NCBI RefSeq assembly: GCF_004028275.1
Contig: NZ_CP035033.1
Coordinates: 372,001 to 436,000, forward strand
Source: Hydrogenovibrio thermophilus
GTDB taxonomy: Bacteria; Pseudomonadota; Gammaproteobacteria; Thiomicrospirales; Thiomicrospiraceae
Direction of reading: 5' to 3'
DNA length: 64,000 nucleotides
In this document: positions 5,241 through 59,068 of the stretch, in pieces
Position numbering within the stretch: the first letter of the stretch is position 1
How the letters are laid out: the number at the start of each line of letters is the position of its first letter
Position numbers and translations under genes: made by a program
Notes under the pieces: model-generated
Seen by the model: the letters and a program-made list of their open reading frames with translations, nothing else
Databases searched by the model: none
What the model was told of the DNA's origin: nothing

Positions 5241-6614
5241 ATGTTTACTGCAACCAACCCGACGACGGGCGAAGTGATTCACCAATACCCAACGCACACG
5301 TCGGAAGAGTTTTCGACGGCGATTGACGATGCTCAATCGGCCTTCCAGGCCTGGCGAAAAACCACCTTTGCCGAACGTGCCGCGCTGATGAATAAAGTGG
5401 CCGATTTAATGGCCGAGGACGAAGAACGCCTGGCGCGTTTGATGACCGTGGAAATGGGCAAGCCGATTCGTGAAGCCTACGGCGAAGTGCAAAAAGCCGC
5501 TTGGTGTGCGCGCCATTACGCCGAGCAGGCAGAGGGCTATTTGGCACCTCAGGAGCTGGCGTCGGATGCCAGTTTGAGTTATGTGCAACACTTGCCATTG
5601 GGACCTTTGTTGGGGATTTTGCCGTGGAACGCGCCCTTTTGGCTGGCGTTCCGTTTTTGCGCCCCGGCCTTGATGGCGGGCAACACCTGCTTGATGAAGC
5701 ACGATTCGCATGTTCCGGCTTGCGCCGAAGCGATTGGGGAATTGTTCGTCAAGGCGGGCGCGCCGAAAGGGCTGATGCAAAATCTACGGCTGCACAACGA
5801 CCAGGTGGCGCAAGTCATTACCCATCCGGCGGTGCAGGCGGTGTCCTTGACCGGCTCCAGTTTTGCCGGCAGTCAGGTGGCGTCGTTGGCCGCCCAACAC
5901 ATCAAACCGGCCGTGCTGGAGTTGGGCGGTTCCGACCCGAGTCTGGTATTGGCGGACGCCGACATCGAAAAAGCCGCGGAAGTGCTGGCGTTGTCGCGCA
6001 TCATCAATGCCGGGCAATCCTGCATCGCCGCGAAGCGAATCATCGTTGAAGCGTCGGTCTATGAAGCGTTTATCGACGCCTTTCATCAGCATCTCGCCAA
6101 GCTGAAAATGGGTGATCCGGCCGAGGAAAGCACACAGGTGGGGCCGATTGCGCGGGAAGATTTGCGTGAAGGCTTGCATCGTCAAGTCACCACCACCGTC
6201 GAACAGGGCGGGCGCTGTTTGCTGGGCGGTGAAATGCCGGTCGGCAAAGGTTTTTTCTATCCGGTGACCTTGTTGGTGGATGTGACGCCGGAAATGCAGG
6301 CGTCCTGTGAAGAAACCTTCGGCCCCATCGCCGTGGTGATGAAGGCCGAATCGGAAGCGGAGGCGATGCGTATCGCCAACGACACCCAATATGGTTTGGC
6401 CGCTTCGATCTGGACGGCGGATACCGCTAAAGCGCAACGCATGGCATCGGACATCGAAGCCGGGCAAGTGGCGATCAACGGCATTGTGAAAACCGATCCG
6501 CGTTTGCCGAGCGGCGGCATCAAACGTTCCGGTTACGGGCGCGAGTTGGGGCCGCATGGTATCTTGGAGTTCGTCAATGTGCAGCAAGTCTGGGTGGGGC
6601 CGGCCAAAACGTAA
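5241..6614 (+). CDS. doeC: NAD(P)-dependent aldehyde dehydrogenase, probable aspartate-semialdehyde dehydrogenase (DoeC-like)
   Basis: 457 residues, aldehyde dehydrogenase superfamily, close to the short succinate-semialdehyde dehydrogenase (Sad) type. The general-base region reads LELGGSDPSLV and the catalytic Cys lies in NAGQSCIAAKR. As last gene of the ectoine-type operon it would oxidise aspartate semialdehyde made by DoeD to aspartate. Without that context succinate semialdehyde would be the default substrate, so DoeC is an inference. AAGGAGAAGG precedes the ATG by six bases. A CCAGGCCTGG palindrome lies at 5345-5354, reading Phe-Gln-Ala-Trp. The gene ends 12 bases from a convergent gene. 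Confidence 0.75.
   Translation: MFTATNPTTGEVIHQYPTHTSEEFSTAIDDAQSAFQAWRKTTFAERAALMNKVADLMAEDEERLARLMTVEMGKPIREAYGEVQKAAWCARHYAEQAEGYLAPQELASDASLSYVQHLPLGPLLGILPWNAPFWLAFRFCAPALMAGNTCLMKHDSHVPACAEAIGELFVKAGAPKGLMQNLRLHNDQVAQVITHPAVQAVSLTGSSFAGSQVASLAAQHIKPAVLELGGSDPSLVLADADIEKAAEVLALSRIINAGQSCIAAKRIIVEASVYEAFIDAFHQHLAKLKMGDPAEESTQVGPIAREDLREGLHRQVTTTVEQGGRCLLGGEMPVGKGFFYPVTLLVDVTPEMQASCEETFGPIAVVMKAESEAEAMRIANDTQYGLAASIWTADTAKAQRMASDIEAGQVAINGIVKTDPRLPSGGIKRSGYGRELGPHGILEFVNVQQVWVGPAKT
5345..5354. repeat. CCAGGCCTGG palindrome, copy 1 (in doeC-like gene)
   Basis: Perfect 10-mer inside a coding sequence, read Gln-Ala-Trp, with an A-run directly to its right. Confidence 0.9.
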
Positions 6615-6626
6615 TAATGCGACGCT

Positions 6627-7790
6627 TTAAAGTTGATGCTTTTCGAACAGCTTTGGTGCCGTTCGATTCACCAAGGCGGCAAATCCCTGCAATAGGCGAC
6701 GCCGTTTGTTCGGAAGGTGCTCAACGTAAAAGGCGGTGTATTCAAGGTGCGGTTGACCGCCGCGCATGCGTTTGAATTGTGCCGCACCGGAGCTGAGGTT
6801 CATCATTTTGCCGCTTTCGTAGGTGTGCTTTAACAGCACCGCCATTAATAAACGGTAGAGCCCGAGCGATTTCGGTAAACGGGTGTCGTAGCCGAGAATC
6901 GGCGTGGTGATGATGTCGCGTTGGGTGAATAGGCCGATGGCGGCCACCACTTGACCGGACGAATCCCGAAACGTATGAAAATCCACCAGGCCTGACTTGT
7001 GCAGATGGTAGAGAAAATCGGCACTGAACTGCGGATTGTGAATCGAGTGCTTATCGATGAACAGTTGCGTGAAAATCCGTTCGATGTCGGCAAAATCGTC
7101 GTATTCCAGCTCCGAAGCCGACGCATATTGCAGAATCGTCTTGCGCAGTAGGCGTTGGTCGTTTTTGCAATTATTGCGTTTCCACCAGTCGGTGTTTTCA
7201 TTGTCGAACAGATACACCTGCCGGGCCGGAATCAATAACCAGCCTTGGGCTTTCAGTCGGCGCATCATGTCGCCGTCGGTGCGGGCGTTGAGCGAGCGCA
7301 GACTCAAACTGTGGTCGGGGTAGCGTTGGGTCAGGTCGGCGACCAGGTTCTGTAAGGTGGCTTCCGACCAATCCGGCACCAAATTGGTGGACACCAACCA
7401 GTTGTTCAGCGACACCGTTTGATTGATTTTGGCGTGTTTCAACGCCAGGCTGCCGAGCCCGATGGCGCCCTTCAAGGCTGTTTCCAGAAACACATTGTTC
7501 AATAACCCTAATTCGTCCCGGGCATAGGAAATGTAAGCCGTGTAGGGCGAACAGACATAGCTGTTGTCGTATTCCGCCTGGTTGACGGTGACGGGTACCC
7601 AATCATCGTCAATCTTTTCCAGCGTCAAACGGGTGGTGACATTGCGAATCGCCTGGTGCACGCCGCCAGCGGCTTGAATGGCTTCGAGATAGCGGTGCGT
7701 GGCCGACTGGCCAAAGGCTTTGGCGGCCGGCGGGTATGTTGAACCGTATACGGGGTTATGCGTCAAGGCATCCGTTCCTTGTTGAATCAT
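6627..7790 (-). CDS. GNAT/FemAB-type acyltransferase, role unknown
   Basis: 387 residues starting at the ATG at 7790, whose first base is shared with the stop of the upstream gene (TAATG), so the two are co-translated. An upstream in-frame extension lies within the neighbouring gene and is rejected. The C-terminal half (about 190-370) looks like an Acetyltransf_6/FemAB-like GNAT domain: AAIGLFTQRDIITTPILGYD, then SSGAAQFKRMRGG followed by a beta strand. No signal peptide or membrane segment is visible. Tight coupling to a BtaA-like lipid enzyme suggests it may acylate or otherwise modify the same head group. That is inference only; it could also be a peptidoglycan or amino-acid transferase. 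Confidence 0.65.
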   Translation of the reverse strand: MIQQGTDALTHNPVYGSTYPPAAKAFGQSATHRYLEAIQAAGGVHQAIRNVTTRLTLEKIDDDWVPVTVNQAEYDNSYVCSPYTAYISYARDELGLLNNVFLETALKGAIGLGSLALKHAKINQTVSLNNWLVSTNLVPDWSEATLQNLVADLTQRYPDHSLSLRSLNARTDGDMMRRLKAQGWLLIPARQVYLFDNENTDWWKRNNCKNDQRLLRKTILQYASASELEYDDFADIERIFTQLFIDKHSIHNPQFSADFLYHLHKSGLVDFHTFRDSSGQVVAAIGLFTQRDIITTPILGYDTRLPKSLGLYRLLMAVLLKHTYESGKMMNLSSGAAQFKRMRGGQPHLEYTAFYVEHLPNKRRRLLQGFAALVNRTAPKLFEKHQL

Positions 7791-9046: not shown

Positions 9047-9341
9047 GGTCTCGTGTGCTCATTTTTTGAATATTCCGGCTATGCTAGCCCGAAAAAATGA
9101 CGCCAGAGTGACCGTAATGTAAAACTTATTTGATGAAAATATGACCGTTTTTCAATGGGTTTCAATCCGCGTTGCTTGTTGAAAAAATGACCAGGCCTGG
9201 TGGTTTTTGGCGCGGGGTTGAGACAGGCGCGGAACTCCTATTTTATTGCATAGTGTGGCTGAACCGCTTTGTTAAAATTTACTTAAACGGATCCGTAGAA
9301 TCCGCTCGAATCAAACGAACTTAAGGAGTCGTTGGAATTTT
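9047..9341. other. divergent intergenic region with a CCAGGCCTGG palindrome
   Basis: This gap of 295 bases lies between the leftward BtaA-like gene and a rightward gene, so no terminator is expected here. It contains a CCAGGCCTGG palindrome at 9191-9200 and several AAAATGAC-like stretches. TAAGGAG at 9322-9328 is the ribosome site of the next gene. No small gene is evident. Confidence 0.5.
9191..9200. repeat. CCAGGCCTGG palindrome, copy 2 (divergent promoter region)
   Basis: Perfect 10-mer preceded by GAAAAAATGA and followed by TGGTTTTT. It sits between the 5' ends of two divergent genes. Confidence 0.9.
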
Positions 9342-10476: not shown

Positions 10477-10504
10477 AAAACCGCCAGGCCTGGCGGTTTT
10501 TGCG
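10477..10504 (+). terminator. intrinsic terminator built on CCAGGCCTGG (copy 3)
   Basis: Positions 10477-10500 are a perfect 24-base palindrome: AAAACCGCCAGG followed by its reverse complement, ending in a T-run. The CCAGGCCTGG core is at 10484-10493. It lies 28 bases past the stop of the MBL-fold gene. Confidence 0.8.
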
Positions 10505-12844: not shown

Positions 12845-13588
12845 TCAGTTCCTTTGGTAATTTCGAATCGCAAACACGGTTTGAAAGCCGAGTTTGCGGT
12901 ACAGCGGTTCGCCCATCGACGATGCCTGTAACACCATATGACGGTGATTGTGGCGGTGACGTTGCATTAAAAACGCCATCATTTCCCGTGCCAAGCCGCG
13001 TCCGCGAAAACAGGGTTGAACGCCCATTTGATGCACGCCGACGGTGGCGCCGGTGCTCAAGGTCAAGGAGGAGGCCGCGGCGTGACGCCCTTGCCAGGCC
13101 AGCCAGAGTTCAATTTGGTCATCCCATAGCAGGCGCTGGATGACCGAAAGGTCGATCTCGTATTGAAAGGCCGCGGACGCCACGGTCACCCATTTCTGCG
13201 CATCCCGTTCGGAAGTGACTTGCCGGATGACAAGCGTTTCGTCCAAAGTGATTTCAGGCATTTGGGTGAAATCCAGATTCATGGCGGTTTGCGGAAGGCG
13301 CATGTCAAAGCCATTCGCAATCAGCGCACTTTCCAATGGCCGAGTTTCCTGATGCGCGACTTCCCAAATCGGGACAATCGGGTTGGGGCTCAGCGCTGCC
13401 AGCGATTCAGCGGTGGTATCCGGTGAAAACTCGGTCATGGCACCTTCCGTCCAAGCGCGGTAAGGCCACTGATTGCAAATTTGAAAATCCGCCAGGCCTG
13501 GTCGATTGTCGGATTTGGCGCCCATGCGTCGCCATAATTCGGTCAGGTTCTGCAAATTGATTTGTGAAGCGAACACACTGTCGGACAT
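12845..13588 (-). CDS. GNAT family N-acetyltransferase
   Basis: 247 residues. The C-terminal half (about 120-245) has the GNAT acetyl-CoA motif VGVHQMGVQPCFRGRGLAREMM and ends with LYRKLGFQTVFAIRNYQ, the usual last strand. The N-terminal half is typical of two-part GNAT proteins and its substrate is not readable. It lies three bases after the YdcZ-like gene and one base before the ICMT-like gene. A CCAGGCCTGG copy at 13492-13501 falls in a probable loop and is read Arg-Pro-Gly-Leu. Confidence 0.8.
   Translation of the reverse strand: MSDSVFASQINLQNLTELWRRMGAKSDNRPGLADFQICNQWPYRAWTEGAMTEFSPDTTAESLAALSPNPIVPIWEVAHQETRPLESALIANGFDMRLPQTAMNLDFTQMPEITLDETLVIRQVTSERDAQKWVTVASAAFQYEIDLSVIQRLLWDDQIELWLAWQGRHAAASSLTLSTGATVGVHQMGVQPCFRGRGLAREMMAFLMQRHRHNHRHMVLQASSMGEPLYRKLGFQTVFAIRNYQRN
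13492..13501. repeat. CCAGGCCTGG palindrome, copy 4 (in GNAT gene)
   Basis: Perfect 10-mer in the 5' part of the GNAT gene, preceded by GAAAATCCG. It is read Pro-Gly-Leu on the coding strand. Confidence 0.9.
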
Positions 13589-17752: not shown

Positions 17753-17762
17753 CCAGGCCTGG
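17753..17762. repeat. CCAGGCCTGG palindrome, copy 5 (after rhodanese gene)
   Basis: Perfect 10-mer between convergent genes, preceded by GAAAATCCA and followed by TAAGTTTT. A conventional terminator lies 70 bases further on. Confidence 0.9.
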
Positions 17763-24286: not shown

Positions 24287-24311
24287 AAAATCACCAGGCC
24301 TGGTGGTTTTT
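24287..24311 (+). terminator. terminator-like palindrome built on CCAGGCCTGG (copy 6)
   Basis: AAAATC, then CACCAGGCCTGGTG, then GTTTTT. The CCAGGCCTGG core is at 24294-24303. It lies 62 bases past cca and only 19 bases before the next start codon. Confidence 0.65.
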
Positions 24312-25250: not shown

Positions 25251-25276
25251 AAAACCGACCAGGCCTGGCCGGTTTT
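25251..25276. terminator. bidirectional terminator built on CCAGGCCTGG (copy 7)
   Basis: AAAACCG and CGGTTTT flank CCAGGCCTGG (25259-25268) with one mismatched base on each side. It lies between the convergent CDF and DUF3365 genes and can serve both. Confidence 0.75.
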
Positions 25277-26098: not shown

Positions 26099-27343
26099 AT
26101 GGCGGTATTACAAAAACTGAAAACAATGCGAAAAGGGTTGATGCCGTTATTGATTGTGCTGGGCGCAATCGCCTTATTTGCGATTTTAAAAATGACCAAG
26201 CCGGCCCAACCGCCGGTGCAGGTGCAGCAGAAAGTCTGGCCGGTGACGGCGATGACGGTGCAGGCCGAGACGCTGGCGCCGGTGATTTCGTTGTACGGTA
26301 CCGTGGAATCCAATGCGTTGGTGACGGCGGCGGCACCGGTAGCCGGTGTGGTTGCCAGCTTGCCGGTGAAAGAAGGGCAGGCGTTTCAAAAAGGTGACCC
26401 CTTGGTGGCGTTGGCGCAAGCCGATATTGAATTGCCGTATCAAATTGCCAAGGCGGATGTGGCGGATACCGAAGCCGAATTGCGCATTCAGGGGTTGTTG
26501 TATGAAGCGAATCGCAAGCGGTTGGATAAGGAAAAGCGCGTTTTGAAAATCAAACAAGATGATGTGAAGCGCAACGGGCAACTGATTAAAAAAGATTTGG
26601 TGTCCAAATCGACATTGGATGCTTCCAAAGAGGCGATGGTGCGACAGGAATACACCGTTGTGGGGGCGCAATTGGCGGTGGAAGAAAATAAAGCCAAAGT
26701 GGCACAGTTGGAAGCGCGCCTGGAAAAGGCCAAGGCCAATTTGGCGCAGGCCGAAATCAACCGTGAGCGCGGCAACGTTATTGCGCCTTACGATGGCCGG
26801 ATAGCGAAAGTCTCAGTGGCGGAAGGCGACCGAGTCGCCGCCAATGCCGCAATGGTCACTTTCTACGGTTTGGATTCACTGGAATTGCGGGCCAAGATTC
26901 CGGGCTTCCAGTTGGATAAAGTCTACGACGCCATCGAAGACGGCGTTACGTTGGCAGCGGAGCTGAAACTCAATGGTCATGCTTATAAACTGCCGTTGAA
27001 ACGTTTGGCCGGGGAAGCGACGCCAAGCGGATTGGATGCCTTTTTTGCGGTACCGGCCACGGCCAAAACCGCCAGGCCTGGTGATTTGTGGCAAGTGAAT
27101 CTGTACGGTCAGCCGGTGCCGAATGTGATGGCGGTGCCTTATTCTGCGTTGTACGGTGCGGACCGTGTCTACATCGTCGTTGACGGGCAGTTGAAAAGCG
27201 TGACCATTCAAAACGTCGGCGAAGTCATGGTGGACGGTCAGGTTTGGGCGATGGTGCGCGGCGATTTGCCGGACGGTGCTCAGGTCGCCACCACGCATTT
27301 ACCGAATGCCGTCAATGGCCTGAAAGTATCGGTGGTGGAATAG
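26099..27343 (+). CDS. RND efflux periplasmic adaptor subunit (membrane fusion protein)
   Basis: 414 residues. One N-terminal membrane anchor (about 12-32: LMPLLIVLGAIALFAILK) is followed by a lipoyl-like half (YGTVESNALVTAAAPVAGVV), a long coiled-coil hairpin (about 100-215), then the second lipoyl half (NVIAPYDGRIAKVSVAEGDRV) and beta-barrel. It links the inner-membrane pump to an outer-membrane channel. The ATG at 26099 follows AGAGGA. The stop codon is directly followed by the pump ATG. A CCAGGCCTGG copy is at 27072-27081. Confidence 0.88.
   Translation: MAVLQKLKTMRKGLMPLLIVLGAIALFAILKMTKPAQPPVQVQQKVWPVTAMTVQAETLAPVISLYGTVESNALVTAAAPVAGVVASLPVKEGQAFQKGDPLVALAQADIELPYQIAKADVADTEAELRIQGLLYEANRKRLDKEKRVLKIKQDDVKRNGQLIKKDLVSKSTLDASKEAMVRQEYTVVGAQLAVEENKAKVAQLEARLEKAKANLAQAEINRERGNVIAPYDGRIAKVSVAEGDRVAANAAMVTFYGLDSLELRAKIPGFQLDKVYDAIEDGVTLAAELKLNGHAYKLPLKRLAGEATPSGLDAFFAVPATAKTARPGDLWQVNLYGQPVPNVMAVPYSALYGADRVYIVVDGQLKSVTIQNVGEVMVDGQVWAMVRGDLPDGAQVATTHLPNAVNGLKVSVVE
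27072..27081. repeat. CCAGGCCTGG palindrome, copy 8 (in RND adaptor gene)
   Basis: Perfect 10-mer preceded by CAAAACCG. It is read Ala-Arg-Pro-Gly here, not the Pro-Gly-Leu frame seen in most coding copies. Confidence 0.9.
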
Positions 27344-30300
27344 ATGTCTCACATTGTTCGTCCGGACCAGCACCCGCAAGATTACGAGGGATATCATCCC
27401 GAAAAAACGTCGTTTAAATCTCATGGTTTCATCGGGCTTTTCGCCCGCCATAAAGTGGCCCCCAATCTGATGATGATGGTCATGATTCTGTTGGGCTTGG
27501 TGGCACTGATGAAGCTCAATGTGCAATTTTTCCCGAATTTCGAACTCGATTACGCCACGGTCAAGGTGGTTTGGCCGGGCGCGAATGCCGAGGATGTGGA
27601 AACTTCCATCACCGATCCGATCGAGCGCGTCATTCGCAATATCGACAATCTGGATGAAATGACGTCCACCTCAGCGCTGGGGATTTCGTCGATTACGTTG
27701 AAGTTCAAGGAAGGCACCAATATGATCGAGGCGGTCGATCAGGTGAAGCAGAAGATCGATGAATTGCGGAACCTGCCGCAGGACTCCGAAACCCCGATGA
27801 TCAGTCGGGTGATTCGTTACGAGATGGTGGCGCGTTTGTTGTTGATCAGCGATAACGGCGATTTGAAAGAATTGCGTCACTTGGCACGGCAGTTTGAGCG
27901 TCAGTTGCTGGATCAAGGCATTGATAAGGTCGATTACGTCGGCATGCCGGAAGAGGAAATGGCGGTGGAAGTGCCGCAACAGGCGTTGGAGAATTACGGC
28001 CTGACGTTGCAGGATGTGTCGAATCAGTTGGCGGGCATGAGTCGTGATTTTCCGGCCGGTTCGGTGGGGGACGACGACAGTGTGCGCGATTTGCGGGCCA
28101 TCAAACAGGGACGCAATGAAGTGGACTTCGAACGGTTGCCGTTGGTGGTGTCCGATACCCAGAATGTGCTGTTGGGCGACATCGCCAATATCGAGCGCCG
28201 CCCGAAAAAGAACGCGCCCATTATTATGGTGGAGGGGCATCCGGCGATTGAGATGAAACTGCAACGCGCCGAATCCGGCGATACGTTGAAGTCCTCGAAA
28301 ATCATGCAGGACTGGCTGGCGAAAACCGAGCCGACCTTGCCGAGCGGCATTCAATTGAAAGTGTATGACGAAATATGGGCGCTGGTGAACGAGCGGATCA
28401 TGCTGTTGTTGAACAACGGTGTGGGCGGTTTGATTCTGGTAATCCTGATTCTGTATTTGTTTATGAACGGTCGGGTCGCCTTCTGGGTGGCGGTCGGGAT
28501 TCCGATTTCCTTTATGGCGACGCTGATGATTATGTATCTGCTGGGCGGCAGCATCAACATGATCAGTCTGTTCGCGTTGATTATGGCCTTGGGGATTATT
28601 GTCGATGATGCCATTGTGGTCGGTGAAGACGCGCTGGCCCATTATGAAATGGGCGAGCCGGCGCTGGAAGCGGCTGAAGGCGGCGCGCATCGGATGCTGG
28701 CGCCGGTGACGGCGTCGTCCATTACCACGGTGGCGGCGTTTGTGCCTTTGATGTTGATCGGGGCGGAAATCGGGAACATTCTGTTTGCGATTCCGCTGGT
28801 CATTATCGCGGTGATTATGGCGTCTTTGTTGGAGAGTTTCGCAGTGTTGCCGGGGCATTTGCGCCATGCATTCAAAAACATCAAGCCGCCGGAAGAGGGG
28901 TCGGTTCGTTATCGGCTGGACAACGCCATCGATCATTTCCGGGAAGTGCAGTTCCGTCGTTTGACGCGTTGGGTGTTGTCGCACCGTGCCATTACCTTGG
29001 CGTCGACATTGGCGTTGATGATTTTTGCCATCGGTCTTTTGGCCGGAGGGCGAATTGCCTTTGTGTTTTTCCCGTCGCCGGAATCGACTCGTTTGCTGGC
29101 GGATGTGCGTTTTGTCGCGGGCACGCCGCCGGAAGTGACGACGCGTTACGTTGATCAGCTTTATCAAGCCTTGCTGGAAACCGAAAAAAACCTTGAGCCG
29201 GGCATTGTCAAAACGGCGGTGGTGCATCATAACGAAACCAATAATGGGGAAACCGGGGCCAACTTCGGGGGCATTAATATCGAGCTGGTGGAGTCGGACC
29301 AGCGTGAAACCCGAAATGCCGAGTTCATCCAGATGTGGCATGAAAAAGCCGGAAAAGTCCCAGGCCTGGACGTTTTGTCGATTGAAGCGCCACGTAACGG
29401 ACCGCCTGGCAGCGACATCGATATTCGTTTGTGGGGCGCGGAGCCGGGCGTGTTGAAACAGGCGTCTCTGGATTTACAACAGGTGTTGTCGCAAATTCCC
29501 GGTGTATCGGGGGTGAAGGACGATTTGCCGTACGGGCGGGATCAGCTGGTGTATGAATTGACGCCGCAAGGTCAAGCGTTGGGCTTTACCTATGCCTCGC
29601 TTGGGCAGCAACTGGCGGATGCGTTTTCCGGGCGGTTGGCACAAATTTTCACCGATGGCGAAGATGAAGTGGAGGTGCGGGTGCAGTATCCGCGCGACGA
29701 ACAGGCCAAACTGGCCACGCTCGGCAGCATGCAGGTGATGACGCCGGACGGGCAAAGTGTGCCGCTGAGTTCGGTGGCGAAATGGAAAAACCAGCAAGGC
29801 TTTGATGCCGTGCGTCATGTGGACGGCCGTTTGACCATTACCGTCAAGGCGGAAGTGGATAAGAGCGTCAATAACGCCAATCGTATTTTGGCCCAGCTTC
29901 AGGAAACGACCTTGAAGGCGTTGGTGGCGCAATACGGATTGAGTTATTCACTGGAAGGTCAGAGCGCCAATCAGGCGGAAACCATCGGCGATATGAAAAT
30001 CGGGCTGCTGATTGGCTTGGCGACCATTTACATTGTGCTGGCCTGGGTGTTTGCGTCCTATGGCTGGCCGTTGGTGGTGATGATGGCGATTCCGTTCGGC
30101 TTGATCGGTGCGATTATGGGGCATTGGGTGCTGGGTATCGATATGACAATTCTGTCGTTGTTCGGTTTCTTCGGTTTGTCCGGCATCGTGGTCAACGATT
30201 CCATTATCTTGGTGAGTTTCTACAAACGGCTTCGTGAAGAAGGGATGGCGATTAACCAGGCGTTGGAAGAAGCGGTGGTGCAACGGGTGCGCGCGGTATT

Positions 30301-33355: not shown

Positions 33356-33365
33356 CCAGGCCTGG
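33356..33365. repeat. CCAGGCCTGG palindrome, copy 10 (between tkt and gap)
   Basis: Perfect 10-mer 17 bases past the tkt stop, flanked by TTTTTTA and CCGGTTTACCGG, which is itself a palindrome. No long T-run follows, so it is at most a weak terminator or mRNA 3'-end hairpin. Confidence 0.9.
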
Positions 33366-38901: not shown

Positions 38902-39590
38902 AGCTGTCCTTGGTAGCCATGATAAGGTGTGTGGACGCATGGATAAGGAACCAGCGATTGGAGGTCGGTGAAGTTTTCCGGGTCGGCGTTGTCGGACAGG
39001 TCATTGAGTACGATTAAGGCGATCGGCTGCTTGGCCGTTTCCAAGGCTCGGATTGTCAGTAGAGCGTGATTCAGACAGCCAAGCTTGTTGCCAACGACGA
39101 GAACAACCGGTAACCCTAGGCGTTGAATCAAATCCAGATTGTCAGCGTCGGGCGTGAGCGGTGAATAAAGCCCTCCTGCACCCTCCACCAGTCGAAACCG
39201 GTCTTGTGGTGCCTGGCAAGCTTCGACCAGCTCGTTTAACCGAATATCAGCACCCGCTTGAGCAATGGCGCGAGCCGGTGAAATCGGGAGCTTAAAACGA
39301 TAAGGGCAAATTGTTTCCAAGTCGTCGGGGGTTTGGCTGGCACTGTGCACCGAGTCAGCGTCTTCCGATAGCAGGCGACCGTCCGGTTGTAGAAGGCAGC
39401 CGGACGCAATGGGTTTTCTGGGCGAAATGACCAGGCCTGGTCGTTTTTGCAATAGGTATTCAGCGATGCGGCAGGTGGTGTAAGACTTACCGGTTTCCGT
39501 GTCGGTACCGGTGATGAAGAAACCGTTCGGCGTGGCCGAGTCGGTTGCATTCAAAAAGGTATCGACAGTGGGAAGCAGTTCGTCGAACAT
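38898..39590 (-). CDS. bioD: dethiobiotin synthase
   Basis: 230 residues. The P-loop GFFITGTDTETGKSYTTCRIAEY starts the fold, with the RPGLVISPRKPIASG lysine region and VEGAGGLYSPL for carboxylation chemistry. It closes the ureido ring of biotin from diaminopelargonate, CO2 and ATP. It is isolated from bioA (51630-52937) and no bioB, bioF or bioC is nearby. It follows purC by 16 bases and may share its transcript. A CCAGGCCTGG copy at 39431-39440 encodes Pro-Gly-Leu. Confidence 0.9.
   Translation of the reverse strand: MFDELLPTVDTFLNATDSATPNGFFITGTDTETGKSYTTCRIAEYLLQKRPGLVISPRKPIASGCLLQPDGRLLSEDADSVHSASQTPDDLETICPYRFKLPISPARAIAQAGADIRLNELVEACQAPQDRFRLVEGAGGLYSPLTPDADNLDLIQRLGLPVVLVVGNKLGCLNHALLTIRALETAKQPIALIVLNDLSDNADPENFTDLQSLVPYPCVHTPYHGYQGQL
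39431..39440. repeat. CCAGGCCTGG palindrome, copy 11 (in bioD)
   Basis: Perfect 10-mer within GAAATGA-N10-TCGTTTTT. It is read Pro-Gly-Leu on the coding strand. Confidence 0.9.
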
Positions 39591-41100: not shown

Positions 41101-41110
41101 CCAGGCCTGG
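41101..41110. repeat. CCAGGCCTGG palindrome, copy 12 (upstream of rpe)
   Basis: Perfect 10-mer in the divergent region between psiE and rpe, 83 bases before the rpe start. GATTGG precedes it and TAAGATAATG follows. No terminator is expected here. Confidence 0.9.
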
Positions 41111-46091: not shown

Positions 46092-46117
46092 GAAAACGCC
46101 CAGGCCTGGCCGGTTTT
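46092..46117 (+). promoter_or_regulatory. CCAGGCCTGG palindrome (copy 13) with terminator-like flanks between trpD and trpC
   Basis: GAAAACGC and CGGTTTT flank the 10-mer (46100-46109) with one or two mismatches. It lies inside the trp operon, 21 bases past trpD and about 100 bases before trpC, so it might reduce trpC expression or protect the upstream mRNA. Confidence 0.6.
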
Positions 46118-48717: not shown

Positions 48718-49917
48718 TTGAACACAGACGCACTTGTCCAACATTTTGCGGAACAAACGCACCCGGATGAACTCGAACAATTCGACCGCTCGACGCTGAG
48801 CCAGTTGTTGAAGGAACACGAGACGCCATTTTTGGTGCTGGACTTGCAGGAAGTCGAATACCAGTATCACGCTTTGCAAAACGCTTTGCCGGGCGTGTCG
48901 CTTTTTTACGCCATTAAATCCCTGGCGCATCCGGCGGTGATTCGCCGTTTGAAAAAACTCGGCGGCCAGTTCGACCTGGCCACGGCAGGCGAAGTGGATT
49001 TGGTAAAAGGTTTGGGCGTGGCCGGCGAACAGTGCATTCACACCCATCCGATTAAAAAGGATAAGGAAATCCGTCACGCGCTGGAATTCGGTTGCCGGCG
49101 GTTTGTGGTGGATAACCCGGCCGAAGTGATTAAGTTTGTACCTTATAAAGACGACGTGGAATTGATCATTCGCGTCAGTTTCCGCAGTCAGGACGCCACG
49201 GTGGATTTGTCCCGCAAGTTCGGTTGCGCCTTGGAAGAATTGCCAGGCCTGGTGGATTTGGCGATGAGCAATGGCATGACCGTGTCCGGTTTGTCTTTCC
49301 ATGTGGGGTCGCAATCCCTGTCGCCGTTTGCCCAGGTGAATGCGATTCAGGCGTCGTTGGCGGCGATGAAGGAAATGGCGCATGTGTCCTGGAAGTGGTT
49401 GGACATCGGCGGCAGTTTCCCGGTGTCTTATCAAGGGCCGGTGATGCCGATTGACGATTTCTGTGCGCCGATTCGCGAGGCTTTGTTGGACGTGCCGGAG
49501 GGGATTGAAGTCTTCGCCGAGCCGGGTCGGTTTATTTCCGCGCCGTCGATGATCGAAGTCCTGCGCATTGTCGGTAAAGCCAAGCGCGGTGCGCGGACTT
49601 GGTATTATCTGGATGACGGTGTTTACGGTGCCTTGAGTGGGCAGATGTATGACCATGCGCAATATCCGATTACCCCGTTAAAACCGTTCGACCCGACCGG
49701 CGATTTCTTCCCGAGCGTGTTGGCAGGACCGACGTGTGACAGTGTGGACGTCATCGACGAAGACATTGAATTGCCGGATTTGGCGGTGGGCGATGTGCTG
49801 GTGGCGAAACAAATGGGGGCTTACACCATTGCGTCCGCCTCGGAATTTAACTATTATCCTAAACCCAAAGTGGTGGTGGTCGAAGATTTGATCGAACACC
49901 CGGAAGACGAATCGTAA
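48718..49917 (+). CDS. ornithine decarboxylase-type PLP enzyme (alanine-racemase fold)
   Basis: 399 residues, type III PLP fold of the eukaryote-like ornithine/diaminopimelate decarboxylase family. The PLP lysine is in SLFYAIKS (Lys67), the phosphate loop in FAEPGRF, and the catalytic Cys-Asp in LAGPTCDSVDVI. Placement after speD-speE makes ornithine the likely substrate, giving putrescine; lysine or a carboxynorspermidine-type substrate is possible. The start is TTG with AGGAG 12 bases upstream; no ATG fits. A CCAGGCCTGG copy is at 49243-49252. Confidence 0.85.
   Translation: MNTDALVQHFAEQTHPDELEQFDRSTLSQLLKEHETPFLVLDLQEVEYQYHALQNALPGVSLFYAIKSLAHPAVIRRLKKLGGQFDLATAGEVDLVKGLGVAGEQCIHTHPIKKDKEIRHALEFGCRRFVVDNPAEVIKFVPYKDDVELIIRVSFRSQDATVDLSRKFGCALEELPGLVDLAMSNGMTVSGLSFHVGSQSLSPFAQVNAIQASLAAMKEMAHVSWKWLDIGGSFPVSYQGPVMPIDDFCAPIREALLDVPEGIEVFAEPGRFISAPSMIEVLRIVGKAKRGARTWYYLDDGVYGALSGQMYDHAQYPITPLKPFDPTGDFFPSVLAGPTCDSVDVIDEDIELPDLAVGDVLVAKQMGAYTIASASEFNYYPKPKVVVVEDLIEHPEDES
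49243..49252. repeat. CCAGGCCTGG palindrome, copy 14 (in ornithine decarboxylase gene)
   Basis: Perfect 10-mer read Pro-Gly-Leu, preceded by GAATTG and followed by TGGATTTG. Confidence 0.9.
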
Positions 49918-50351: not shown

Positions 50352-50401
50352 AGTTGGGGTTGCGCGGCTACCGCGCACCCGAAACGCATAACCGTTCTTT
50401 A

Positions 50402-50428
50402 AAAACGCCCAGGCCTGGGCGTTTTTTC
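50402..50428. terminator. bidirectional terminator built on CCAGGCCTGG (copy 15)
   Basis: Positions 50402-50425 are a perfect 24-base palindrome, AAAACGCCCAGG plus its reverse complement, ending in TTTTTT. It lies between the convergent OsmC and peptidase genes. The core 10-mer is at 50409-50418. Confidence 0.85.
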
Positions 50429-50448
50429 GTTTCAGCTCTCTGACAAAA

Positions 50449-52937: not shown

Positions 52938-53038
52938 AAGTGCCCCGTTCGGTTGTGGGTGAAAATTGCAATCGGTCAGACGGGCATTATACAAATCCCG
53001 CCGTTGGAAATCGAACTCTGCACGAATATCGAAATTGA

Positions 53039-53048
53039 CCAGGCCTGG
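53039..53048. repeat. CCAGGCCTGG palindrome, copy 16 (between truC and bioA)
   Basis: Perfect 10-mer in the gap upstream of bioA, preceded by GAAATTGA and only 28 bases from the next copy. No T-run follows. Confidence 0.9.
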
Positions 53049-53068
53049 CAGCCTGCTAGCCCAAAACC

Positions 53069-53848
53069 TTAATCGTCCAGGCCTGGCGAGTTTTGCCAGT
53101 TCAAGGCGTTGAGCGCCGTTTGAAAAGAGGTTTCCGGTTCGGCCGTCAAATGCAGGTGTTCGCCGGTGACAGGGTGCGTGAAGATGAGGTCGGTGGCGGC
53201 GAGGTAGAGTCGGTGCTGTCCCAGCCAGTCGTGAAAGAAATGGTTGTGGTGTCGGTCGCCGTATTGCACGTCGCCGATGATTGGGTGGTTGATGTGGTTG
53301 AGGTGACGGCGAAGTTGATGCTTGCGGCCAGTCTGCGGCATGAGTTTCAACAGTGAGTAACGCTGGTGGTCGTAACGGCCCATCCGGTGTGTGACTTCCG
53401 CGATGGCGAGGCGCTGAAACCGGGTGACGGCTTCTTGAGGTGGTTTGTCCTGGCGAGCGTGCTTGTCGGCGATTTTATCGAGCTTATGTTTCAGGGCATG
53501 ATCGATTTCGCCGCTTTCAGGTGTCCAGCCGCGGCAAATGGCTTGGTAATGTTTTGCAATCTGGTGGGCTTCAAATTGTTCGCCCATGCGTTGGGCGGTG
53601 TCGCGGTCCAGTGCAAACAGTAACAGACCGGAAGTGGCTTTATCCAAACGATGCAGGGTGTGAACCGGTTGGCCGATGGCATCTCGCGTCATTTGCAAGG
53701 CGAAACGGGTTTCGTGTTTATCGATGGGGGAGCGGTGTACCAATAGCCCGGCCGGTTTGTGGATGGCGACCAAATGGTCGTCCTGATAGATAATTTTGAA
53801 TTGGTCGAGCTGACAGTCGGTATGCATAATAATAAGTGGCGGTGCCAT
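53069..53848 (-). CDS. truC: tRNA pseudouridine(65) synthase TruC
   Basis: About 252-259 residues, RluA family. The catalytic motif is HTLHRLDKATSGLLLF with the nucleophilic Asp. The pattern ELDKIADKHAR/QD, GRYDHQRYSLLKLMPQTGRKHQLRRHLNHINHPIIGD matches E. coli TruC closely, more than RluA, RluC or RluD. It modifies U65 in certain tRNAs. The start may be 53827 (MHTDCQLDQF) rather than 53848; neither has a clear ribosome site. It ends with a CCAGGCCTGG copy. Confidence 0.88.
   Translation of the reverse strand: MAPPLIIMHTDCQLDQFKIIYQDDHLVAIHKPAGLLVHRSPIDKHETRFALQMTRDAIGQPVHTLHRLDKATSGLLLFALDRDTAQRMGEQFEAHQIAKHYQAICRGWTPESGEIDHALKHKLDKIADKHARQDKPPQEAVTRFQRLAIAEVTHRMGRYDHQRYSLLKLMPQTGRKHQLRRHLNHINHPIIGDVQYGDRHHNHFFHDWLGQHRLYLAATDLIFTHPVTGEHLHLTAEPETSFQTALNALNWQNSPGLDD
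53077..53086. repeat. CCAGGCCTGG palindrome, copy 17 (last codons of truC)
   Basis: Perfect 10-mer encoding Pro-Gly-Leu two residues before the truC stop codon, followed by CGAGTTTT. Confidence 0.9.
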
Positions 53849-53942
53849 CCGGTTTCGGTTTCACAGTGGTTGCATATTGTAAACAAAACCCTGTGCTGAA
53901 ATAAGAGGCGATGTATTTGTGCACATAAATAAGGAGCAAAAC

Positions 53943-54455: not shown

Positions 54456-54470
54456 AACACAGGAGTCATT

Positions 54471-54923: not shown

Positions 54924-55103
54924 ATCTTTCGTAACAAGGACTTGAAATGGTGGGGCAGGTGTTTTTAAATGAAGCCTCGCTTTTATGCGGTTGGGTAAGG
55001 GGTGATTTGAATCCGAAATTGTCGCGGTTCATCGTTGAAAAACACAGTCAAAATCGGCAAAAAAAGGCCTTCCGGAGAAAATAGAAAAATTCCGGTTTTT
55101 TTC

Positions 55104-55131
55104 TTGACACCCAGTATTTTTCCTTTAAAAT
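55104..55131 (+). promoter_or_regulatory. sigma-70 promoter of the tRNA-tufB operon
   Basis: TTGACA (55104-55109) and TAAAAT (55126-55131) are 16 bases apart, 19 bases before the tRNA-Tyr gene. The -35 is consensus, as expected for a stable-RNA promoter. A GC-rich stretch (TACGCCCATC) follows the -10 box, similar to a stringent discriminator. Confidence 0.7.
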
Positions 55132-55150
55132 ACGCCCATCAATTTGATTG

Positions 55151-55235
55151 GGAGGGTTTCCCGAGCGGCCAAAGGGGGCAGACTGTAAATCTGCTGGCTA
55201 TGCCTTCAGTAGTTCGAATCTACTACCCTCCACCA
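55151..55235 (+). tRNA. tyrT: tRNA-Tyr (GTA)
   Basis: Acceptor GGAGGGT pairs with ACCCTCC, anticodon GTA at 55185-55187, a long variable arm as expected for bacterial tRNA-Tyr, T-loop TTCGAAT, and encoded CCA. Total 85 bases. Confidence 0.95.
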
Positions 55236-55258
55236 TTTTCAATTGAGTTTTACATTAT

Positions 55259-55333
55259 GCGGGTATCGTATATTGGCTATTACCTCGGCCTTCCAAGCCG
55301 ATGAGGGGGGTTCGATTCCCCCTACCCGCTCCA
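55259..55333 (+). tRNA. glyT: tRNA-Gly (TCC)
   Basis: Acceptor GCGGGTA pairs with TACCCGC, anticodon TCC at 55292-55294 in a CTTCCAA loop, T-loop TTCGATT, encoded CCA. 23 bases after tRNA-Tyr. Confidence 0.95.
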
Positions 55334-55397
55334 ATTCAAGGCTCTCTTTGTTGGTCTGCATGAAGGTGGATTAATGGCGAGGGCCTTTTTAATATTT

Positions 55398-55473
55398 GCT
55401 CTCATAGCTCAGTAGGTAGAGCGCATCCATGGTAAGGATGAGGTCACCAGTTCGATCCTGGTTGAGAGCTCCA
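55398..55473 (+). tRNA. thrT: tRNA-Thr (GGT)
   Basis: Acceptor GCTCTCA pairs with TGAGAGC, anticodon GGT at 55431-55433, T-loop TTCGATC, encoded CCA. It lies 65 bases before the EF-Tu start. Confidence 0.95.
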
Positions 55474-55538
55474 TTTTTCATTTAATATAGGCGGGCGTGC
55501 CTTTAGAGGTTTGTCGCTGTTTTAACGGAGTTTGCATC

Positions 55539-56729
55539 ATGGCAAAGGAAAAGTTTGAACGTAGTAAGCCGCACGTAAACGTTGGTACGATTGGTCACGT
55601 TGACCATGGTAAGACAACTCTTACAGCGGCTCTAACAATCGTACAAGGTAAGAAGTTTGGTGGGGAGTCAAAAGACTATTCCGCTATCGATAACGCACCG
55701 GAAGAAAGAGAGCGTGGTATCACGATCTCTACGGCTCACGTAGAGTACGAATCAGAAACGCGTCACTACGCGCACGTAGACTGCCCAGGGCACGCCGACT
55801 ATGTTAAAAACATGATTACCGGTGCCGCTCAAATGGACGGCGCGATCCTGGTTTGTTCTGCCGCAGATGGCCCAATGCCACAAACACGTGAGCACATCCT
55901 TCTATCTCGTCAGGTAGGTGTACCGTACATCGTAGTATTCCTAAACAAAGCCGACATGGTTGACGACGAAGAACTTCTAGAGTTGGTTGAAATGGAAGTG
56001 CGTGAACTTCTAGACACCTACGATTTTCCAGGTGATGACACGCCAGTTATCATGGGGTCTGCCCTTAAAGCCATCGAAGGTGACCAATCTGAAATCGGTG
56101 AACCAGCGATCGGTCGTTTGGTTGAGGCGTTGGATACTTACATCCCAACACCAGAGCGTGACACTGACAAGCCATTCTTGATGCCAGTAGAAGACATCTT
56201 CTCCATCCAAGGTCGTGGTACGGTTGCCACCGGTCGTGTTGAAACAGGTGTTGTAAAAGTTGGTGAAGAAATCGAAATCGTCGGTATTCGCCCAACGACT
56301 ACTACAACGGTTACTGGTGTTGAAATGTTCCGTAAGCTTCTGGATCAGGGTGAAGCCGGTGACAACGTAGGTATCCTATTGCGTGGTACTAAGCGTGAAG
56401 ACATTGAGCGTGGTCAAGTATTGGCGCACAAAGGTACGGTTACACCGCATACCAAGTTCGAAGCCGAAGTTTATGTACTATCCAAAGACGAAGGTGGTCG
56501 TCACACACCATTCTTCCAAGGTTACCGTCCACAGTTCTACTTCCGTACAACGGACGTAACAGGTGCGTGTGAATTGCCAGCCGGAACTGAAATGGTTATG
56601 CCTGGTGATAACGTACAAATGACTGTAGAGTTGATTGCGCCAATCGCAATGAACGAAGGTCTGCGCTTCGCGATTCGTGAAGGTGGACGTACAGTTGGTG
56701 CAGGTGTTGTAGCTAAAATTATTGAATAA
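55539..56729 (+). CDS. tufB: elongation factor Tu
   Basis: 396 residues, full length. G1 GHVDHGKT (19-26), G3 DCPGHADY, G4 NKAD, and the three-domain EF-Tu sequence ending [11 protein letters not shown]. It delivers aminoacyl-tRNA to the ribosome. Location after tRNA-Tyr/Gly/Thr and before tRNA-Trp-secE is the classical tufB place. The ATG at 55539 ([14 protein letters not shown]) is the family start; an upstream frame extension is rejected. Very strong codon bias. A terminator follows. Confidence 0.97.
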
Positions 56730-56751
56730 TAATAGCGACTACTTGCTAAAC

Positions 56752-56783
56752 AAAAAAGGGGGATGTATAATCCCCTTTTTTTT
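56752..56783 (+). terminator. intrinsic terminator after tufB
   Basis: An A-run, GGGGGAT, loop, AATCCCC and a T-run of nine. It separates tufB from the tRNA-Trp-secE-nusG transcript. Confidence 0.88.
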
Positions 56784-56813
56784 CGAAAGCCGAAATTAAA
56801 TGTTTTCGGTTAC

Positions 56814-56890
56814 AGGGGTATAGCTCCAATTGGTAGAGCACCGGATTCCAAATCCGGGTGTTGGGGGTTCGAATCCCTCTACCCCTGCCA
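56814..56890 (+). tRNA. trpT: tRNA-Trp (CCA)
   Basis: Acceptor AGGGGTA pairs with TACCCCT, anticodon CCA at 56848-56850, T-loop TTCGAAT, encoded 3'-CCA. It is 60 bases before secE, the usual gene order. Confidence 0.95.
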
Positions 56891-56950
56891 TATTTTATAG
56901 CGGCTTGTCGGTTGGACAGGTCGTTTTTATTTCAGAATATAGTTAATTAT

Positions 56951-57334
56951 ATGAGTCAAAAAGCAGAAAATCACTCAAGTGCCAAGGCGATGGAAACGAT
57001 GAAGGTACTCGTTTCGCTTGCATTGCTTTTGTTGAGTTTAGCCGGTTATTACATTTATTCGGATGTCCATGCTGTAGTAAGAGTGCTTGGGTTGATTGGT
57101 GGTCTTGTTGTCGCCGGTTTGGTTTTTTATCAGTCTGAGAAAGGTAAGGCGTGGTTCAGTTATCTTTCTCATGCGCAGAAAGAAGTGAAGCAAGTAATTT
57201 GGCCAACGCGGCAGGAAACGGTTCAGATGACCCTGATTGTTTTTGTGGTGGTGATTCTGATGAGTATTTTCTTGTGGTTGGTGGATATGTTCTTTTTGTG
57301 GGCTGTTCAAATCTTAACAGGACAAGGTGGTTAG
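56951..57334 (+). CDS. secE: preprotein translocase subunit SecE
   Basis: 127 residues with three membrane helices, the E. coli-like long form. The conserved amphipathic region reads [20 protein letters not shown] before the last helix. It stabilises SecY in the inner-membrane translocon. The ribosome site is weak (TCAGAATATAG). It is separated by one base from nusG (TAG T ATG). Confidence 0.93.
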
Positions 57335-57335
57335 T

Positions 57336-57869
57336 ATGGCTCAGAGATGGTATGTCGTTCATGCGTATTCAGGGTATGAAAACAAAGTTAAGAAGAGCTT
57401 AGCGGAATACGTTGAACGTGCGGGCTTGGAAGATAGCTTTGGGCAGATTCTCGTGCCTTCGGAAGAAGTGGTTGAAATTCGAGAAGGCAAGAAACGTACG
57501 TCTGAGCGCAAGTTCTTCCCGGGCTATGTTCTGGTTCAAATGGAAATGAATGAGGAAACCTGGCATTTGGTTAAGAGTGTTCCTCAGGTGATGGGCTTTA
57601 TTGGTGGAACCTCGGACCGTCCGGCACCAATCACACAAAAAGAAGTCGACCGTATTCTTCAGAAAGTGGAAGACGGTGTGGATAAGCCGAAGCCAAAAGT
57701 GATTTACGAACCTGGCGAAATGGTTCGTGTTATCGACGGTCCTTTCAATGACTTTGAAGCGGTTGTTGAAGAAGTGGATTACGATAAAAACAAGCTACAG
57801 GTGTCTGTGCTTATTTTCGGGCGTTCCACGCCGGTTGAGCTTGAGTTTACTCAGGTCGAAAAGAATTAA
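57336..57869 (+). CDS. nusG: transcription termination/antitermination factor NusG
   Basis: 177 residues. NGN domain: [19 protein letters not shown] and [13 protein letters not shown]-terminal [25 protein letters not shown]. It binds RNA polymerase and couples transcription to Rho or ribosomes. It starts one base after secE and leads on to rplK after a 74-base gap. Confidence 0.96.
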
Positions 57870-57943
57870 TGTCCGGCGCTGGAAGGCGCTGGAGTTTTTA
57901 ACCCTGGGAAGTCGAAAGACGTTATACCCACAAGGAGAAGAAA

Positions 57944-58372
57944 ATGGCTAAGAAGATTGAAGCCTATATCAAGTTGCAGGTCCCTGCCGGGAATGCAAAC
58001 CCAAGTCCGCCGGTTGGTCCTGCTCTGGGTCAGCATGGTGTGAACATCATGGAGTTCTGTAAAGCGTTTAACGCACAGACTCAATCCCTTGAGAAAAACT
58101 TGCCGGTTCCGGTTGTTATCACTGTGTATAACGATCGTAGCTTTACGTTCATTACCAAAACGCCTCCTGCGTCTATTCTGTTGAAGAAAGCCGCTGGTGT
58201 CGCTAAGGGTTCCGGTGTGCCTAACATGGATAAGGTTGGGACGGTAACGCGCGCGCAGTTGGAAGAAATTGCGAACGCTAAAATGGCCGATTTGAATGCG
58301 AACGATTTGGATGCTGCAGTGAAAATCATTGCCGGTTCCGCTCGTAGCATGGGCTTGAATGTAGAGGGGTAA
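57944..58372 (+). CDS. rplK: 50S ribosomal protein L11
   Basis: 142 residues, full length. [31 protein letters not shown] is the conserved N-terminal domain and the C-terminal domain ends [13 protein letters not shown], the L11 signature. It forms the GTPase-associated centre with 23S rRNA and is needed for RelA response. AAGGAGAAG precedes the ATG. rplA follows after six bases. Confidence 0.96.
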
Positions 58373-58378
58373 TCGAAC

Positions 58379-59068
58379 ATGGCAAAGTTGACAAAAAAAC
58401 AAAAGCTTTACGCTGAAAAAGTTGATGCCCTAAAAGCTTATGATGCTTTGGAAGGTTTCTCATTGGTATCCGAGTTGGCGACGTCTAAGTTTGTTGAGTC
58501 GGTAGATGTTTCCATTAAGTTGGGTATCGATCCGCGTAAATCCGATCAGGTTGTGCGTGGTGCGACAGTAATGCCAAACGGAACGGGTAAAGATGTGCGT
58601 GTCGCAGTCTTTACGGGTGAAGGAAATGCCGAAGCGGCGAAAGGAGCCGGTGCGGATTTCGTTGGTATGGATGAATTGGCGGCTGAAATCAAAGGCGGTA
58701 TGATGGATTTCGACGTGGTTATCGCGTCCCCTGATGCGATGCGCGTCGTTGGTATGTTGGGTCAGGTTTTGGGGCCAAGAGGCTTGATGCCAAACCCGAA
58801 AACCGGAACCGTTACGCCTGATGTTGTGAGTGCAATCAAAAACGCTAAGTCCGGTCAGGTTCGTTTCCGTGCCGACAAAGCCGGTATTGTTCATGCATCC
58901 ATCGGTAAAGTGGATTTTGCGCCTGAAAAATTGAAAGAAAATTTGAATGCGTTGATTGAAGATCTAAACAAGGCTAAGCCAGCCGCTGCGAAAGGGACTT
59001 ACATGAAAAAAGTCAGTGTTTCCAGCACAATGGGACCAGGCCTGGTTATTGATCAGTCAACACTGTAA
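58379..59068 (+). CDS. rplA: 50S ribosomal protein L1
   Basis: 229 residues, full length. GRVGRL1-type landmarks: [60 protein letters not shown]. It builds the L1 stalk and represses its own operon by binding mRNA in relatives. A CCAGGCCTGG copy near its 3' end (59036-59045) encodes Pro-Gly-Leu in a very conserved region. Confidence 0.96.
59036..59045. repeat. CCAGGCCTGG palindrome, copy 18 (3' end of rplA)
   Basis: Perfect 10-mer read Pro-Gly-Leu, seven codons before the rplA stop codon. It is the last perfect copy in the window. Confidence 0.9.

What the first reader, a model, noticed from the sequence alone, without database searches (positions are those of the whole stretch)
5345..59045. 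CCAGGCCTGG: an 18-copy, strongly over-represented perfect palindrome
I count 18 perfect copies starting at 5345, 9191, 10484, 13492, 17753, 24294, 25259, 27072, 29360, 33356, 39431, 41101, 46100, 49243, 50409, 53039, 53077 and 59036. A random 64-kb sequence would give well under 0.1. Ten copies lie between genes although intergenic DNA is a small part of the window. Many have an A-run 2-4 bases to the left and a T-run to the right, giving an extended form AAAA-N(2-4)-CCAGGCCTGG-N(2-4)-TTTT. Several act as terminators, but others sit in divergent promoter regions (9191, 41101), between co-directional genes, or inside genes, so termination alone does not explain the set. The motif is two abutting CCWGG sites around GGCC, so a methyltransferase or a chromosome-wide binding protein are both open. 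Near-copies with one mismatch occur at 1940, 6986 and 63715. It resembles the cyanobacterial HIP1 case in being highly iterated and palindromic.
Basis: partly seen in the sequence, partly recalled or inferred. Interest (0 to 1): 0.9.

Follow-up and report, generated by a model that had tools for sequence, protein, structure and literature searches.

The report
Palindromic self-DNA tag in sulfur bacteria
A short mirror-image DNA word repeated hundreds of times through a sulfur-oxidising bacterium's chromosome looks like a species 'password' for taking up kin DNA, and sister species carry differently spelled passwords, some of them at exactly the same gene positions.

Summary
Confirmed and extended. 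CCAGGCCTGG occurs 18 times in the window and 673 times in the 2.61-Mb chromosome, reversed control 0. At least 200 copies are in 26 of 62 family genomes; 129 genomes of other families of the class have 0-39. Several genomes without it carry a relative: CCAGGTTGGG (400 and 364 copies), CCAGGCTGGG, CCAGGGGTGG, AGCAGGCCTGCT, (A/C)CAGGCCTG(T/G), ACCGGCCGGT (1025). 37 of 62 have an identified word. Each dialect has an A/T tract a few bases outside the core; in the window genome each palindrome half behaves as its own module. Copies lie in and between genes, are more evenly spaced than random in the 431 kb examined and are absent from a 30.5-kb Tn7-like element. Sister species carry their own dialect at orthologous positions: 7 of 10 CCAGGTTGGG sites of G010 read CCAGGCTGGG in G003. 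This is the anatomy and evolution of DNA uptake sequences. Best reading: a further family of uptake signals whose common form is palindromic. No uptake assay was done, and no receptor was found. Termination alone, sub-site methylation, Chi and insertion elements fit worse.

The parts
5345..5354 (.). CCAGGCCTGG copy 1, in a gene
   Evidence: identical in sister genome G009
9191..9200 (.). copy 2, between divergent genes
   Evidence: identical in G009 although flanks differ
10484..10493 (.). copy 3, between convergent genes; extended palindrome, hairpin fold -17.6 kcal/mol (z -1.9)
   Evidence: identical in G009
13492..13501 (.). copy 4, in a gene
   Evidence: not in an alignment to G009
17753..17762 (.). 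copy 5, between convergent genes
   Evidence: identical in G009
24294..24303 (.). copy 6, between co-directional genes; hairpin fold -11 kcal/mol (z -1.2)
   Evidence: identical in G009
25259..25268 (.). copy 7, between convergent genes
   Evidence: identical in G009
27072..27081 (.). copy 8, in a gene
   Evidence: identical in G009
29360..29369 (.). copy 9, inside the 1056-aa ORF 27344-30514, with A/T-rich flanks on both sides
   Evidence: identical in G009
33356..33365 (.). copy 10, between co-directional genes
   Evidence: identical in G009
39431..39440 (.). copy 11, in a gene
   Evidence: identical in G009
41101..41110 (.). copy 12, near the 5' end of ORF 40989-41897 or upstream of its true start
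   Evidence: identical in G009
46100..46109 (.). copy 13, between co-directional genes; does not fold as a palindrome hairpin
   Evidence: identical in G009
49243..49252 (.). copy 14, in a gene
   Evidence: identical in G009
50409..50418 (.). copy 15, between convergent genes; hairpin fold -15.2 kcal/mol (z -3.2)
   Evidence: identical in G009
53039..53048 (.). copy 16, between co-directional genes
   Evidence: one base different in G009
53077..53086 (.). copy 17, at the 3' end of ORF 53069-53848
   Evidence: identical in G009
59036..59045 (.). copy 18, at the 3' end of ORF 58379-59068
   Evidence: two bases different in G009
1941..1950 (+). half-complete copy CCAGGCCTGC, A/T tract on the intact side
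6986..6995 (+). half-complete copy CCAGGCCTGA, AAAA tract on the intact side
63715..63724 (-). half-complete copy GCAGGCCTGG (as read on +), A/T tract on the intact right side

Best explanation
CCAGGCCTGG with its flanking A/T tracts is a self-DNA uptake signal (USS/DUS-like) of the Hydrogenovibrio-Thiomicrospira-Thiomicrorhabdus family. A surface receptor of the competence machinery prefers fragments with the word; recombination of preferentially imported kin DNA then accumulates and purifies the word genome-wide (molecular drive). SHOWN by sequence: genome-wide iteration; core plus A/T tract architecture; two semi-independent half-modules in the window genome; dialects; orthologous dialect replacement by point substitution; absence from one acquired element; comEC, comEA and dprA genes. 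INFERRED: that the recognising step is DNA uptake, that the receptor is a pilin-type protein, and that the palindrome lets a fragment be recognised in either orientation. Terminator use at some gene ends would be secondary.
For: 673 copies, reversed control 0. In a 464-kb sample 130 perfect copies against 1.1-1.7 expected; one-mismatch copies 59 against 27 expected, 37 of the 59 at the outer base. A/T tract at +4..+7 and a weaker one at +12..+14 in coding and non-coding copies; GC-rich control 10-mers show none. Halves are modules: 40 copies with one outer base lost keep the tract on the intact side (about .88) but not on the other (about .43). Seven dialects in the family. Orthologous replacement: of 10 CCAGGTTGGG sites of G010 in blocks aligned to G003, 7 carry CCAGGCTGGG; one position inside a 1333-aa gene carries three dialects in six genomes, each its own. 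15 of 17 alignable window sites identical in G009, against 53% of GC-rich 10-mers (binomial P 0.0026). Spacing more even than random outside one gap (CV 0.76, P 0.002; 431 kb); the gap is a Tn7-like element with 0 copies where 7.9 are expected. Near-balanced strands and inverted pairs in one-way dialects. ComEC is found in 36 of 37 word-bearing and 20 of 25 word-free genomes, ComEA in 36 of 37 and 17 of 25 (Fisher P 0.035 and 0.002, uncorrected for kinship or genome completeness). Published USS features match: core plus A/T segments, regular spacing, two subclade dialects (PMC1626085, passages).
Against: No uptake or transformation test was done, and my searches showed none for these bacteria. 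No receptor identified: the GspH/FimT-type minor pilin model matches 3 of 62 genomes; homologues of the pilin cluster near miaB are in all 10 loci examined, word-bearing or not (loci chosen by pilin hits). No genome reaches the PilQ model's cut-off; 57 of 62 have weaker secretin-like matches. DprA does not discriminate (62 of 62), and most word-free genomes keep ComEC and ComEA. Published uptake sequences are described as non-palindromic (PMC1939737, passages). The window genome's own comM is split by the Tn7-like element. Scattered 20-kb stretches show evenness without significance (P 0.11). G010 has a mild positional excess of forward copies (84 where 67 are expected, P 0.005). The half-module coupling is clear only in G000 and G009.
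Confidence: 0.72

Rival explanations
1. The word is the binding site of an intracellular dimeric protein (nucleoid organiser, segregation or repair factor) that needs roughly one site every 4 kb.
For: A palindrome with symmetric A/T flanks suits a dimer; more even spacing than random; conserved sites.
Against: The word is absent or replaced in relatives of the same genus; sites changed dialect in parallel at orthologous positions; none in the 30.5-kb acquired element; 24 of 60 placed genomes have no identified word (9 of the 25 such genomes were sampled for another word).
Confidence: 0.17
2. HIP1-like methylation-linked word: a DNA methyltransferase acting on a sub-site (CCWGG, GGCC, AGGCCT) drives accumulation.
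For: Contains two CCWGG around GGCC; AGGCCT is mildly high outside the 10-mer (1.47); HIP1 precedent (PMC4390886, passages).
Against: CCWGG and GGCC are under-represented outside the 10-mer (0.80, 0.78); A/T tract coupling and non-palindromic sister dialects are not expected. No search for methyltransferase genes was made.
Confidence: 0.05
3. Intrinsic terminators made from one favoured hairpin.
For: Copies are commoner outside predicted genes than expected (72 of 134; 27 expected from 80% coding); convergent gaps hold 24 in 15.9 kb, divergent gaps 6 in 20.4 kb; three of four intergenic copies folded form the hairpin.
Against: 62 of 134 copies are inside predicted genes with the same flanks; the two coding copies and one intergenic copy folded do no better than shuffles; a terminator scan of 44001-64000 flags none of the six copies there.
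Confidence: 0.03
4. Small mobile repeat (REP/MITE) or Chi-type recombination site.
For: Many dispersed copies.
Against: Orthologous positions change dialect by substitution without indels in the core; one-way dialects show near-balanced strands, unlike Chi as I recall it.
Confidence: 0.03

Closest known systems
Uptake signal sequences (USS) of Pasteurellaceae, Hin and Apl types (PMC1626085, passages)
   Same: Short core plus A/T segments, many copies, arise by mutation, more regular than random, dialects between subclades
   Different: Common form here is palindromic with tracts on both sides; 673 copies in 2.61 Mb against close to one per kb; seven dialects in one family; uptake not tested; receptor unknown
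DNA uptake sequences (DUS) of Neisseriaceae and their dialects (PMC3630211, abstract start and one passage)
   Same: Iterated word with dialects, some copies in inverted pairs
   Different: DUS is described as without flanking motifs (PMC1626085 passage); uptake sequences are described as not palindromic (PMC1939737 passage); ComP receptor known (PMC12616744 passage), none found here
HIP1 GCGATCGC of cyanobacteria (PMC4390886, passages)
   Same: Highly iterated palindrome, genome-wide
   Different: [quoted passage not shown] no A/T tracts mentioned in the passages seen

Membership tests
USS/DUS uptake sequences | Extreme genome-wide over-representation, not by composition | tested here: met
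USS/DUS uptake sequences | Core with A/T segments at fixed distance (USS type) | tested here: met
   weak in G026
USS/DUS uptake sequences | No strong strand bias, regular spacing | tested here: met
   strand counts in one-way dialects (mild positional excess in G010); spacing in 431 kb, not significant in 19 scattered stretches
USS/DUS uptake sequences | Related dialects in related species, arising by point mutation | tested here: met
USS/DUS uptake sequences | Scarce in recently acquired DNA | tested here: met
   one element only, found as the largest gap: 0 copies, 7.9 expected; a gap that long has P 0.018 among random placements
USS/DUS uptake sequences | Competence genes comEC, comEA, dprA present | tested here: met
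   56, 53 and 62 of 62 genomes (56, 40 and 60 over the cut-offs); all three in G000, but comM split there
USS/DUS uptake sequences | Type IV pilus secretin PilQ | tested here: inconclusive
   0 of 62 over the model's cut-off, 57 of 62 weaker matches; only 1 of 14 control genomes is over the cut-off
USS/DUS uptake sequences | Cognate sequence-specific receptor (ComP, ComN) | tested here: inconclusive
   GspH/FimT model in 3 of 62; ComP and ComN themselves not searched
USS/DUS uptake sequences | Preferential uptake of DNA bearing the word | not testable with these tools
   needs an uptake assay
USS/DUS uptake sequences | Non-palindromic word (as described in PMC1939737) | tested here: not met
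   own word is palindromic; words of four sister genomes are not. I take this as a description of the known cases, not as a defining feature
HIP1 | Word GCGATCGC with methylated sub-sites | tested here: not met
   different word; sub-sites CCWGG and GGCC not enriched; methylation itself not testable
Intrinsic terminator | Located downstream of genes, hairpin plus T-run | tested here: not met
   not met by the set: 62 of 134 in genes; some single sites fit

The most novel reading that the evidence does not exclude
A further family of self-DNA uptake signals, in chemolithoautotrophic sulfur bacteria, whose common form is a bidirectional palindrome of two autonomous half-modules, and in which the word has been rewritten several times, including a change between palindromic and one-way dialects inside a single genus.
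Probability: 0.62. Interest if true: 0.9.

Novelty: new variant of a known kind. Interest (0 to 1): 0.82.

Why it matters
Uptake sequences are, in the papers seen, described for two bacterial families (PMC1939737 abstract), and how a word shared by hundreds of sites can change is hard to observe. Here dialect change can be read site by site between close relatives, with a palindromic and a one-way form in the same genus and the changes placed on a tree. It offers a test of molecular drive versus selection, a natural experiment for finding the receptor by covariation, and a possible barrier to gene exchange between sulfur-oxidiser species.

Tried and rejected
Motif discovery in 9 of the 25 genomes without an identified word (G012, G016, G017, G018, G024, G037, G042, G043, G047; 20-120 kb each) found no strong word; 16 of 25 were not sampled. 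Competence genes as strict presence/absence partners of the word fail: DprA is in 62 of 62, and most word-free genomes keep ComEC and ComEA, with a weak trend in the expected direction. The pilin cluster near miaB as receptor candidate: homologues in all 10 loci, which had been chosen by pilin hits. GspH/FimT: 3 of 62. Methylation sub-sites CCWGG and GGCC: not enriched. Spacer variants CCAGG-N-CCTGG: 0-1 copies for each spacer of 1-8. The half-module coupling is clear in G000 (40 sites) and G009 (7 sites), weak or untestable in six other palindrome genomes (1-6 sites each), and not seen in the samples of G021, G025, G035 and G061. Tree runs had wrong strands for some rows and were replaced; 2 of 62 genomes (G027, G059) had only partial dprA and were left out. 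In one search the labels of G003, G007, G021, G025, G035 and G061 rest on samples, that of G053 on counts alone. Genome-wide counts of CCAGGCTGGG and CCAGGGGTGG were not made. No prior report was found in the searches, in an open-licence library only; for I saw only part of the hits (for example 20 of 49).
Full report
OBSERVATION. Markov models of order 1 to 4 expect 0.04-0.22 copies in the window. The window lies at 372001-436000 of a 2,612,894-base single contig, which holds 673 copies and none of the reversed pattern. Ribosomal protein L10 is 86% identical to Hydrogenovibrio sp. SC-1 and 87% to a Piscirickettsiaceae MAG, and one same-genus handle (G004) has a contig of exactly the length of the H. 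halophilus DSM 15072 record, so the host is a Hydrogenovibrio-like sulfur oxidiser (inference).

DISTRIBUTION. In one search (191 genomes), 26 of the 62 family genomes have at least 200 copies; the 129 genomes of other families of the class have 0-39. Inside the window's genus 7 of 11 have 367-677 copies and 4 have 0-1. The 8-bp core CAGGCCTG is at 236 copies or more in 32 of 62.

DIALECTS. The four palindrome-free genomes of the genus carry one-way words: G001 and G010 AAAATCTRCCAGGTTGGGG (400 and 364 copies of CCAGGTTGGG, 0-7 in the other 60), G003 AAAATCTRCCAGGCTGGGG (27 copies in 198 kb) and G007 AAAATCGCCAGGGGTGG (16 in 99 kb). G031 carries ACCGGCCGGT 1025 times (0-15 in the other 61). 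G061 carries AGCAGGCCTGCT, and G021, G025, G035 a looser (A/C)CAGGCCTG(T/G). With the 32 core-bearing genomes this makes 37 of 62 with an identified word; of the other 25, 9 were sampled without finding one. On a dprA tree of 60 genomes the three one-way words form one clade (100/97), and all labels together need 12 changes against 26.7 when shuffled.

ANATOMY. The profiles (12 sets of genomes) show an A/T peak within about 4-8 bases outside the core, weak in G026. In the window genome it is at +4..+7, with a weaker one at +12..+14, in coding (62) and non-coding (72) copies, and not around control GC-rich 10-mers. Copies that lost one outer base (40) keep the tract on the intact side (about .88) and not on the broken side (about .43). 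Copies with two, one and no complete halves, 134:40:1, fit independent halves with p = 0.88 (expected 135.5:37:2.5). So each half acts as a module, tract plus about three bases plus CC, and the palindrome is two opposite modules on a shared core. The three near-copies of the window obey the rule. In other genomes the coupling is clear in G009 (7 sites) and weak or untestable elsewhere.

EVOLUTION. Against G009 (7.0% divergence in the aligned window) 15 of 17 alignable window sites are identical, against 53% of GC-rich 10-mers. One position, inside a 1333-aa helicase-like gene (label by recall), reads CCAGGCCTGG in G000, G009 and G008, CCCAACCTGG in G001 and G010, and CCCAGCCTGG in G003, the last two being the reverse complements of those species' own words. 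This is 1 of 4, 1 of 5 and 1 of 7 palindrome rows of G000 in alignments to G001, G003 and G010 (some other rows are gapped; one region appears twice among the 7). Between G010 and G003, 7 of 10 CCAGGTTGGG sites show the swap, 1 keeps the TT form in G003 and 2 have no word there; between G001 and G003, 8 of 16 show it; G001 and G010 share 10 of 10. Sites therefore arise and change by substitution, each genome converging on its own word.

GENOMIC CONTEXT. Outside one gap the spacing is more even than random (CV 0.76, P 0.002; 110 sites over 431 kb); 19 scattered 20-kb stretches point the same way without significance (P 0.11). The gap, the largest in that stretch, holds a 30.5-kb (bounds by ORFs), 39% GC Tn7-like element (TnsA, TnsB-like, TniB, TniQ) inside comM, with Wadjet, Shos-like and SoFic-like genes, and no copy where 7.9 are expected. 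Copies are rarer in predicted genes than coverage predicts (62 of 134, 107 expected), and non-coding copies favour convergent over divergent gaps (24 in 15.9 kb, 6 in 20.4 kb). Three of four folded intergenic copies form the hairpin, two coding copies do not; a terminator scan of 44001-64000 flags none of its six copies. Gene calls are crude (80% coding), so these shares are approximate.

MECHANISM. Known uptake sequences have the same set of features: core plus A/T segments, regular spacing, origin by mutation, subclade dialects (PMC1626085, passages), a proposed molecular drive (PMC1939737, passages), and minor-pilin receptors, ComP tested and ComN predicted (PMC12616744, abstract and passages). 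I therefore rate an uptake signal as the best explanation (0.72). ComEC and ComEA are in 36 of 37 word-bearing genomes and in 20 and 17 of 25 word-free ones; DprA is in all 62. This trend is confounded by kinship and incomplete genomes. The PilQ model's cut-off is reached nowhere and no receptor was found. An intracellular binding protein is the main rival (0.17); it would need parallel replacement of many sites without a drive.

KNOWN VERSUS NEW. It works like USS/DUS; membership is unproven without an uptake assay. New, as far as the searches named in Tried and rejected show, are the palindromic form, the bacterial family, and the number of dialects.

Noticed in passing
G000:C1 about 323263-353787 (L171 1263 to L172 11787): Tn7-like element (TnsA, TnsB-like, TniB, TniQ) splitting comM and carrying Wadjet JetABC, Shos-like and SoFic-like defence genes.
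   Followed up: partly
L220 4259-9278 (G000:C1:636259-641278): Divergent pilin-like gene cluster with a response regulator and histidine kinase upstream of miaB; pilin homologues in all ten loci examined, miaB beside them in nine (not in the G004 locus), the regulator pair not found in G001, G003, G004 and G010.
   Followed up: partly
L094 117-10265 (G003:C1): 28 copies of a repeat, 27 of them about 318 bases apart in tandem.
   Followed up: no
G000:C1:551289-553370: Five neighbouring prepilin-type genes, probably the GspG-K pseudopilins of a type II secretion system (label by gene order, recalled).
   Followed up: no
G043 samples (L139, L140, L154-L157): Weak excess of several 10-12 bp palindromes (CAAGCGCTTG, TTGCCATGGCAA, AAATCCGGATTT), too few to call a dialect.
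   Followed up: no
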